Source of the DNA: Solirubrobacterales bacterium
GTDB lineage: Bacteria > Actinomycetota > Thermoleophilia > Solirubrobacterales > 70-9
NCBI GenBank assembly: GCA_030835185.1
Contig: JAUQWL010000006.1
Span: forward strand, 1 to 34,375
Direction: 5' to 3'
Length of the DNA: 34,375 nt
The notes under the pieces are model-generated. The model did no database searches, was not told the DNA's origin, and was given only the letters and a program-made list of their open reading frames with translations. Both the position numbers and the translations under genes were made by a program. Numbering within the stretch: the first letter of the stretch is position 1; every line of letters begins with the position of its first letter. Shown here one piece after another: positions 22,200 through 24,395 of the stretch.

Positions 22200-22934
22200 T
22201 CAGCCCCCTGCCGAGGAGCGGCCCTTTCTGGGCGTCGTGTCCGGATCCCCGTTTTCGGGATCTTCGCGGCCGGAAAGCTCGGCCACCTGCTTCTCCAGTT
22301 CCTTGATTCGCGCGGAGAGGATCTTTACGGCATCCTGGAGCGGGTCGGGGAGGTGGATCCAGTCGGCGTCGGGGCCTTCCACCTTGCGACCTTCCACCTT
22401 GACCGGGTGGCCCGGGTTCCCGACCACAGTCGAGCAGGGAGGAACGTCCTCGACCACGACCGTGTTCGCCCCGACCTTGGCGCCGTGCCCCACCGTGACC
22501 GGGCCGAGGAGCTTGGCCCCGGAACCGATCGTGACGTTGTCCTCGACGGTCGGATGCCGTTTGCCCGCCTGAAAGCCGGTGCCTCCGAGGGTCACCCCCT
22601 GGTAGAGCGTCACGTTCTCGCCGATCTCGGCGGTCTCGCCGATGACCACGCCGGATCCGTGGTCTATGAAGAAACCGGACCCGATCCGTGCCCCGGGGTG
22701 GATCTCGATGCCGGTGATCGAGCGGCTCGCCCAGGAAATCCCCAGAGGCAGGAGCGGCACCTCACGGGCTTTCAGACGGTGGGCGAGCCTGTAGGCAAGA
22801 ACGGCTTGGACTCCGGGCCAGGTTGCAAGGATCTCGACCGTCGAGGCACCGGCGGTTGCCGGGTCTCGTCCGCGGGCTGCGTCGACGTGGTCCATCACCG
22901 CAGCGACTACCCGGCTGATCGAGGAGCCGGCCAT
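22200..22934 (-). CDS. cysE: Serine O-acetyltransferase with C-terminal coiled-coil extension
   Basis: Left-handed beta-helix acetyltransferase (244 aa) making O-acetylserine, the substrate of CysK encoded just upstream. Core signatures: [45 protein letters not shown] (catalytic His in the DHGSG context), [49 protein letters not shown]. After the helix there is a 45-residue extension with a short coiled coil ([24 protein letters not shown]) and a charged tail ending SSAGG. The classical CysE C-terminal isoleucine that docks into CysK is absent. The start shares its A with the cysK stop (TGATG), so the two are coupled. Confidence 0.95.
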
Positions 22935-23854
22935 CAGGACGCGAAGAACGGCAGGGACATGTAGCGATCGCCGGAATCGCAGATCACCGTGACGATCCGG
23001 CCGCCTTTGAATTCCGTGCGCGCGGCCAGTTCGAGAGCGGCGTGAACGTTCGCACCTGCGGAGATGCCGCCGAGGATGCCCTCCTCTCTGGCCAGGCGGT
23101 GGGCGGTTTCGACCGCATCTTCGTCCTTTACCTGGAGGTACTCATCGATCAGGCCGACCTCGAGCACGTCTGGAACGAAGCCGGCACCGATGCCCTGGAT
23201 CCTGTGAGGACCGGCCCTGCCGCCCGACAGCACCGGCGAGGAGGCGGGTTCGACAGCGAAGATCTTCGCCGGGGACTCCCTGTCCTTCAGGAACCTGGCG
23301 ACTCCGGTGATCGTGCCACCCGTTCCCACGCCGCAGACGAATGCCGAGATCTCACCTTGGGTATCGGTCCAGATCTCCGGCCCGGTGGTCCGGAAGTGGG
23401 CCTCGGGGTTGGCCGGATTCGAGAACTGCTGTGGCATGAAAGCGTTTCGCTCTTCGGCGACCCGGGCTGCCATCGCCACCGCCTCGTCCATTCCTCCCAT
23501 CGAGGGCGTTTCCATCACCTCGGCTCCATAGGCGCGAAGCAGCCTGCTGCGCTCCCGGCTCATGCCTTCGGGCATAGTCAGGACGAGTTCGTAGTCGCGG
23601 GCCGCGCAGATCATCGCCAGGGCGATGCCGGTGTTTCCGCTGGTCGGTTCGACGATGGTGGACTCCCCACGGGCGATCAGCCCTTTGGCTTCGGCGGCTC
23701 CGATCATCGCGGCGCCGATCCGGTCCTTGACCGAACCGCCGGGATTGAAGTACTCGAGCTTGCCGCAGACTTCCGCGTCGAGGTCTCTGCCTGTCCGGGC
23801 CAGCCAGACCAGCGGTGTACCGCCGACTGTGGCCGATGCCTGAGGGGCAATCAA
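22934..23854 (-). CDS. cysK: Cysteine synthase (O-acetylserine sulfhydrylase)
   Basis: PLP enzyme (306 aa) that replaces the acetyl group of O-acetylserine with sulfide. The PLP lysine is in [12 protein letters not shown], the substrate loop is [13 protein letters not shown], and the phosphate-binding glycine loop is [27 protein letters not shown] and [12 protein letters not shown] near the end complete the family pattern. It starts with TTG overlapping the Rrf2-regulator stop (TTGA) and is followed by cysE. The tight rrf2-cysK-cysE order indicates one operon for cysteine synthesis. Confidence 0.96.
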
Positions 23855-24249
23855 ATGAAGTACATCCTCGCCGCCGCTTCCTCGCGCTCACGGCCCTCGA
23901 TCTCGGCGATAGTGGCATCACCGAAAACCCCCCGGAGCGCACCCACGCCGTCTGCCCAGATACCGCCGGCCTCGTCGGCCTCCTGACCGACTTTGCCGTC
24001 CAGCGCCTGCACGACTTCGAGCACCGTGATCTGGTCGGCGGGCCGGGCGAGCGTATAGCCGCCCTTGCTGCCGCGGTGGCTGGTCAGCAGCCCGGCGCGG
24101 CGCAGGGTCGAGAAGAGCTGTTCGAGGAACTGATCCGGGATCTCCCGTCGCTCGGCCAGTTCCTTTATCGGGACCGGGTTCTCACCGGACCGGGCCAGCT
24201 CGGCCATCGCTACGACGGCGTATCGTGACTTTGACGTAATCGAGATCAC
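23851..24249 (-). CDS. Rrf2-family transcriptional regulator, CymR-like
   Basis: Winged-helix regulator of 132 aa, first gene of the cysK-cysE operon. The N-terminal part MISITSKSRYAVVAMAELA...IKELAERREIPDQFLEQLFSTLRRAGLLTSHRGSKGGYTLARPADQITVLEVVQALDG is textbook Rrf2, with the wing HRGSKGGY. It has no cysteine at all, so unlike IscR or NsrR it cannot bind an Fe-S cluster. That agrees with CymR, the Rrf2 protein that controls cysteine metabolism together with CysK. The C-terminus is ARMYFI, ending in an aromatic residue and isoleucine. The GTG start has a TAGAAA element 6 bases upstream and a distant TTGTCC; no operator palindrome could be recognised. I infer CymR-like function from family, lack of Cys and operon context. 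Confidence 0.88.
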   Translation of the reverse strand: MISITSKSRYAVVAMAELARSGENPVPIKELAERREIPDQFLEQLFSTLRRAGLLTSHRGSKGGYTLARPADQITVLEVVQALDGKVGQEADEAGGIWADGVGALRGVFGDATIAEIEGREREEAAARMYFI

Positions 24250-24395
24250 AGGCTCTTTCTACAGCAAGCCGGCCCCGTCGGGACAAACCCGCCCGGGCTC
24301 GCCTGCCCGCAGCGCCGTTTCAACCGGCGGTTCCGGGTCGAGTGCCCGGCGCAGTGGAATGCGTCTCTCGGCAGTACCGACGCCGGCCTCGGGGA

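What the first reader, a model, noticed from the sequence alone, without database searches (positions are those of the whole stretch)
22200..24249. CymR-like regulator carries the CysK-docking type tail (…MYFI) that its operon partner CysE lacks
The Rrf2 protein encoded first in the rrf2-cysK-cysE operon has no cysteines and ends in ARMYFI. CysE in the same operon ends in a coiled coil and SSAGG, with no C-terminal isoleucine. From established work on the cysteine synthase complex, CysE docks into the CysK active site through a C-terminal Ile, and other CysK partners such as CdiA toxin use the same trick. CymR of Bacillus/Staphylococcus is a known CysK partner. My inference is that in this lineage CysK pairs with the regulator through its tail, not with CysE, so O-acetylserine level is sensed by release of the regulator from CysK.
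Basis: partly seen in the sequence, partly recalled or inferred. Interest (0 to 1): 0.7.

Follow-up and report, generated by a model that had tools for sequence, protein, structure and literature searches.

The report
CysK-docking tail on cysteine regulator
In this group of soil and water actinobacteria, the protein that probably switches cysteine-making genes ends in a short tail of the shape known to plug into the cysteine-making enzyme CysK, and the tail was kept in nearly every relative checked even where the usual plug, on the enzyme CysE, was lost.

Summary
Window rrf2-cysK-cysE is a tight operon of a Solirubrobacterales (Thermoleophilia) genome; the regulator has no cysteine and ends RMYFI, and CysE ends SSAGG. 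The requested conservation test passes: all 80 named order-level loci end in Y-x-I, and 141 of 143 class genomes with the orthologue match to the last profile position (the two exceptions are a contig end and a broken frame). Twenty paralogous Rrf2 proteins: none ends in Ile. CysK keeps the whole docking pocket, and the tail's aromatic-x-Ile shape matches known CysK ligands. A CymR-like, CysK-docking regulator is therefore the best reading, but binding is inferred. The idea is not new in kind: B. subtilis CymR binds CysK, and its C-terminal Ile is already noted in print. 'Regulator instead of CysE' holds for this order but is derived: in 29 of 54 other genomes with the tailed regulator, CysE also ends in Ile. 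The most interesting addition is that tailed regulators elsewhere in Actinomycetota usually carry a three-cysteine [2Fe-2S]-type loop, which this order lost apparently independently of Bacillus CymR. CysE's new AGG end is itself conserved and unexplained.

The parts
23851..24249 (-). rrf2: cysteine-free CymR-like Rrf2 regulator, 132 aa
   Evidence: Pfam Rrf2 100.8 bits; nearest solved fold 2y75 B. subtilis CymR
23854..23865 (-). C-terminal tail M-Y-F-I, presumed CysK-docking peptide (aromatic at third-last position, terminal Ile)
   Evidence: Y-x-I invariant in the order; last residues of low confidence in the model
23851..23854 (-). 4-nt overlap of rrf2 stop (TGA) with cysK start (TTG)
   Evidence: sequence; same overlap in 13 relatives
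22934..23854 (-). cysK, O-acetylserine sulfhydrylase, the only CysK of the genome
   Evidence: best solved relative is M. tuberculosis CysK1, whose complex with CysE tail DFSI is solved (2q3c; PMC9547175)
23630..23644 (-). CysK TSGNT loop (residues 71-75), binds the carboxylate of a docked Ile
   Evidence: invariant in alignment A3
23423..23428 (-). CysK Gln143-Phe144, pocket for the Ile side chain
   Evidence: invariant in A3
23177..23188 (-). CysK GAGF (residues 223-226), Phe226 is the likely equivalent of HiCysK Phe233 that stacks on an aromatic at the third-last peptide position
   Evidence: role from PMC9547175; equivalence by motif
22200..22934 (-). cysE, serine O-acetyltransferase, the only CysE of the genome
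22272..22343 (-). CysE C-terminal helix (residues 198-221)
   Evidence: AlphaFold2 model
22203..22223 (-). CysE C-terminal motif G-R-S-S-A-G-G replacing the usual terminal Ile; conserved, function unknown
   Evidence: AGG in 51/54 loci, Gly codons vary synonymously

Best explanation
The first gene encodes a CymR-like regulator that reads the cysteine state through CysK. Its last residues (Tyr-x-Ile) insert into the CysK active site when O-acetylserine (OAS) is scarce; the CysK-regulator complex binds the operator of this cysteine operon more tightly and represses it. When cysteine runs short, CysE is relieved of feedback inhibition, OAS rises, occupies CysK, displaces the tail and the operon is expressed. 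In Solirubrobacterales the regulator is the only one of the two operon partners that can plug CysK, because CysE has lost its terminal Ile, and the regulator has also lost the cysteine ligands seen in its relatives, leaving CysK as the only input visible in its sequence. Shown: gene order, tail and pocket conservation, co-occurrence, loss of CysE Ile and of the cysteine loop. Inferred: tail binding, release by OAS, repression (by analogy with B. subtilis CymR).
For: Y-x-I end in 80/80 named loci of the order and match to the last profile position in 141/143 class genomes, against 0/20 paralogues. The same end is read in solved CymR sequences of S. aureus and Listeria (YMFYI) and in the Thermincola regulator 4cic (YMYYI). 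The aromatic sits where DFSI (M. tuberculosis CysE) and MNYDI (0.22 uM for Salmonella CysK, about 50 times tighter than the native pentapeptide YGDGI) carry theirs (PMC9547175). Pocket residues T71, S72, T75, Q143, F144, F226 are invariant. Tailed regulator co-occurs with CysK: 141/143 genomes with it against 22/107 without. Regulator Ile 48/48 against CysE Ile 11/48, with at least 8 changes of CysE state on its tree. P. aeruginosa CysE, which lacks the Ile, does not affect its CysK (PMC13256707). B. subtilis CysK binds CymR and stabilises it on DNA, with OAS as signal (PMC4961446, PMC2940859).
Against: No binding, structure of a complex or expression datum exists for this lineage. One Rrf2 next to cysK (L279) lacks the tail, and 22 class genomes have CysK without a tailed regulator found at that threshold. 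No operator palindrome was recognised upstream of rrf2. The protein scores 85 bits with the NCBI CymR model, below its 195 cut-off.
Confidence: 0.7

Rival explanations
1. The tail docks into CysK but CysK works as an anti-regulator: it pulls the protein off DNA, or the tail mainly serves to cap and slow CysK, taking over the job of CysE in the classical cysteine synthase complex.
For: Same docking evidence as above; CysE and CdiA tails occupy the CysK active site (PMC12895370, PMC5562914), and in C. elegans docking sequesters EGL-9 (PMC5562914).
Against: The only characterised relative, B. subtilis CymR, is stabilised on DNA by CysK (PMC4961446).
Confidence: 0.17
2. The tail is not for CysK: it is a degradation signal or a structural element of the regulator.
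For: Short hydrophobic C-termini can be protease signals (general knowledge); the model places it at the end of the last helix.
Against: Only Ile is accepted, never Leu, Val or Met, with an aromatic fixed two residues before it; it co-occurs with CysK and matches CysK ligands; the end is flexible in the model.
Confidence: 0.1
3. The end is a by-product of the overlap with the cysK start codon and ribosome-binding site.
For: In the window and 13 relatives the stop overlaps the cysK start by 4 nt.
Against: The tail is kept in loci where cysK is tens of bases to 5 kb away and in L225-L226 where another gene follows; Ile codons vary.
Confidence: 0.01

Closest known systems
CymR of Bacillus subtilis, Staphylococcus aureus and Listeria
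   Same: Rrf2 fold (nearest solved structure 2y75), no cysteine loop, end M-[YF]-[YF]-I, CysK as presumed partner and OAS as presumed signal
   Different: About 32% identity in the fold match; well below the NCBI equivalog cut-off; on a different branch of the tree; encoded in an operon with cysK and cysE
Cysteine synthase complex (CysE tail in CysK, GxGI or DFSI)
   Same: A C-terminal Ile peptide aimed at the CysK active site
   Different: Here the tail is on a regulator; CysE ends in Gly
IscR-type [2Fe-2S] Rrf2 regulators, including Thermincola potens IscR (4cic)
   Same: Fold; several actinobacterial relatives with the same tail carry C-x7-10-C-x5-C, and 4cic ends YMYYI
   Different: All 80 order-level loci lack any cysteine in that loop
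CdiA toxin of E. coli 536 and EGL-9 of C. elegans
   Same: Unrelated proteins with a C-terminal Ile that bind CysK or its homologue (PMC5562914)
   Different: Not transcription regulators of cysteine genes

Membership tests
Rrf2 regulators (Pfam PF02082) | score over the gathering cut-off | tested here: met
   100.8 bits against 30
CymR (NCBIfam NF047409 equivalog) | score over 195 bits | tested here: not met
   85.3 bits, although aligned end to end 3-132 / 2-139
CymR | no [2Fe-2S] cysteine loop | tested here: met
   0/80 order loci have a Cys in the loop; 76/80 have no Cys at all
CymR | C-terminal aromatic-x-Ile tail | tested here: met
   CymR ends
CymR | binds CysK, released by OAS | not testable with these tools
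   needs binding assays
CymR | binds operators of cysteine genes | tested here: inconclusive
   upstream alignment shows a conserved TGCGGTAGAAAGG-like block but no palindrome
Canonical cysteine synthase complex (CysE-CysK) | CysE ends in Ile | tested here: not met
   0/54 complete CysE in the order end in Ile; 54/54 end in Gly
CysK | equivalog model and docking pocket intact | tested here: met
   TIGR01139 394 bits over 351; pocket invariant

The most novel reading that the evidence does not exclude
Gram-positive bacteria hold a broad clade of regulators with two inputs on one protein, a [2Fe-2S] loop and a CysK-docking tail, coupling iron-sulfur supply to cysteine supply. CymR of Bacilli and the regulator described here are two independent reductions that dropped the cluster and kept the tail. 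In Solirubrobacterales CysE meanwhile exchanged its CysK-docking Ile for a conserved AGG end with a new, unknown partner.
Probability: 0.45. Interest if true: 0.7.

Novelty: new variant of a known kind. Interest (0 to 1): 0.5.

Why it matters
It carries the CymR-CysK 'enzyme as sensor' idea from Firmicutes to a large actinobacterial class. It offers a simple evolutionary readout of which CysK partner matters most (regulator Ile kept, CysE Ile lost repeatedly), and it gives a cheap, decisive peptide-binding test. The tail on proteins with an intact cysteine loop predicts a physical link between cysteine synthesis and Fe-S regulation that the papers read here do not report.

Tried and rejected
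Overlap with the cysK start as the cause of the tail: rejected. A strict either/or between regulator tail and CysE Ile: rejected, both coexist in families f5, f6, f7, f73, f26, f62 and f72. Coupling of cysteine-loop loss to CysE-Ile loss: not clean, since two f5 genomes lack the loop yet keep CysE GAGI (G136, G425). CysE AGG as a sulfur-carrier end, prompted by a ThiS-ThiF-JAB cluster in a sister family: only a thought, as CysE has no beta-grasp fold. The key papers Tanous 2008 and Campanini 2015 are not held, so they are cited through others.

Full report
What is there. The window carries, on the minus strand, rrf2 (24249-23851), cysK (23854-22934) and cysE (22934-22200), overlapping by 4 and 1 nt, between gltX upstream and a UvrD-like helicase gene downstream. 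Named relatives place the genome in Solirubrobacterales, class Thermoleophilia, phylum Actinomycetota. The genome has one CysK, one CysM-type enzyme and one CysE.

Is the tail conserved? Yes. In 60 of 61 order-level genomes the best match runs to the last residues (one incomplete genome lacks the gene), and all sequences read end in [MTSL]-Y-[FYHWQ]-I. In 80 named loci the last residue is Ile 80/80 and the third-last Tyr 80/80; Ile is encoded by ATC 63, ATT 16, ATA 1. In alignment A4 columns 130 and 132 have zero entropy, while most of positions 86-128 vary. In a class-wide sample of 250 genomes, 143 hold the orthologue and 141 match to the last profile position; the two exceptions are a contig end and a broken frame. 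Twenty Rrf2 paralogues from the same genomes: none ends in Ile.

Is it tied to CysK? Of the 143 genomes with the tailed regulator 141 have CysK, against 22 of 107 without; for CysE 136 of 143 against 19 of 107 (Fisher p about 1e-43 and 1e-39; these do not correct for shared ancestry). rrf2 lies within about 5 kb of cysK in 64 of 80 loci. CysK is closest in sequence to M. tuberculosis CysK1, whose complex with the CysE tail DFSI is solved, and its docking residues are invariant.

Does the tail look like a CysK ligand? Reviews give the rules: the terminal Ile supplies about 80% of the energy, through the TSGNT loop and the Phe144 pocket, and an aromatic at the third-last position stacks on Phe144 and Phe233 of Haemophilus CysK. 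MNYDI binds Salmonella CysK at 0.22 uM and native YGDGI at 11.8 uM (PMC9547175). R-M-Y-F-I has Tyr at that place. The same end is read in solved CymR sequences of S. aureus and Listeria (YMFYI) and in Thermincola 4cic (YMYYI); the B. subtilis end YMFYI is from memory, since the 2y75 construct stops short of it.

Regulator instead of CysE? In this order yes: 0 of 54 complete CysE end in Ile. Outside it the picture is mixed. Of 54 genomes of the class and phylum with the tailed regulator, 29 have CysE ending GAGI, GSGI, GDGI or similar and 25 do not (in about 20 of these genomes the regulator's tail is known from the profile match only). On the CysE tree of 48 genomes the Ile state changes at least 8 times, while the regulator's Ile never changes. 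So both partners probably docked in the ancestor, the regulator tail is the durable one, and the order's CysE lost its plug. P. aeruginosa CysE, also without the Ile, shows no effect on its CysK (PMC13256707).

The cysteine loop. Most tailed regulators of families f6, f7, f73, f26, f23, f62, f72 and others carry C-x7-10-C-x5-C, the usual ligand pattern of [2Fe-2S] Rrf2 proteins; the order has none (0/80) and f5 mostly 0-1, at most 3. The Thermoleophilia tailed proteins form one clade (98/89) with cysteine-bearing f6 and f7 at its base, and Bacilli CymR lie on another branch. The simplest reading is two independent losses of the cluster with the tail kept. 4cic, named T. potens IscR, has the tail and serines at the three ligand places, probably an engineered variant (inference). 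The tree rests on 148 columns and many forks are weak.

The CysE end. In the order CysE ends G-x-x-[SPT]-A-G-G (AGG 51/54, Gly 54/54) with synonymous codon changes, after a disordered linker. Within f5, GAGI, AAGG and PAGG occur side by side, suggesting that Ile was replaced by Gly and the end then recruited for something else. This is unexplained.

What is known already. CymR-CysK of B. subtilis, its OAS signal, the C-terminal Ile of CymR and the missing CysE-CysK complex there are in print (PMC12895370, PMC2940859, PMC4961446). Two searches of the held library gave no report on such a regulator in Thermoleophilia or on the tail of cysteine-loop-bearing relatives, but most subscription papers are not held. 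Hence: a new variant of a known kind.

Limits. Everything on binding and direction of regulation is inference. One Rrf2 beside cysK (L279) lacks the tail. The NCBI CymR cut-off is not met, so I describe the protein as CymR-like rather than as CymR.

Noticed in passing
22203-22223 (-) and CysE ends in L111-L185: CysE of Solirubrobacterales ends in a conserved G-x-x-[SPT]-A-G-G under protein-level constraint; partner unknown.
   Followed up: partly
L221 1889-7400: Sister family f6 has rrf2-cysK-ThiS-ThiF-JAB-ATP-pyrophosphatase (LarE-like by eye)-C_GCAxxG_C_C protein-cysE, a sulfur-carrier type cysteine cluster.
   Followed up: partly
L225 2348-4439, L226: In family f7 the tailed rrf2 is followed by an ATP-pyrophosphatase (LarE-like by eye) and cysE with end GLGI; cysK lies elsewhere in the genome.
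   Followed up: partly
L279 1658-3112: cysK followed by an Rrf2 with three loop cysteines but no tail, then what looks like a short NifU-like fragment.
   Followed up: partly
L289 2420-2821: Rrf2 next to cysK in G240 ends NYSI, close to the DFSI end of M. tuberculosis CysE, and has five cysteines.
   Followed up: no
L292 4441-5872: cysK-cysE pair of another actinobacterial family with CysE ending DPAMYI, an aromatic-Ile end on CysE.
   Followed up: no
24250-24290, upstream of rrf2: Block TGC[GT]GTAGAAA just before the start codon is conserved in 19 relatives; may be a -10 element or ribosome-binding site.
   Followed up: no
L282 622-1713 (-): Second PLP enzyme of the genome, resembling mycobacterial CysM (by eye), with Tyr in place of the pocket Phe after Gln.
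   Followed up: no
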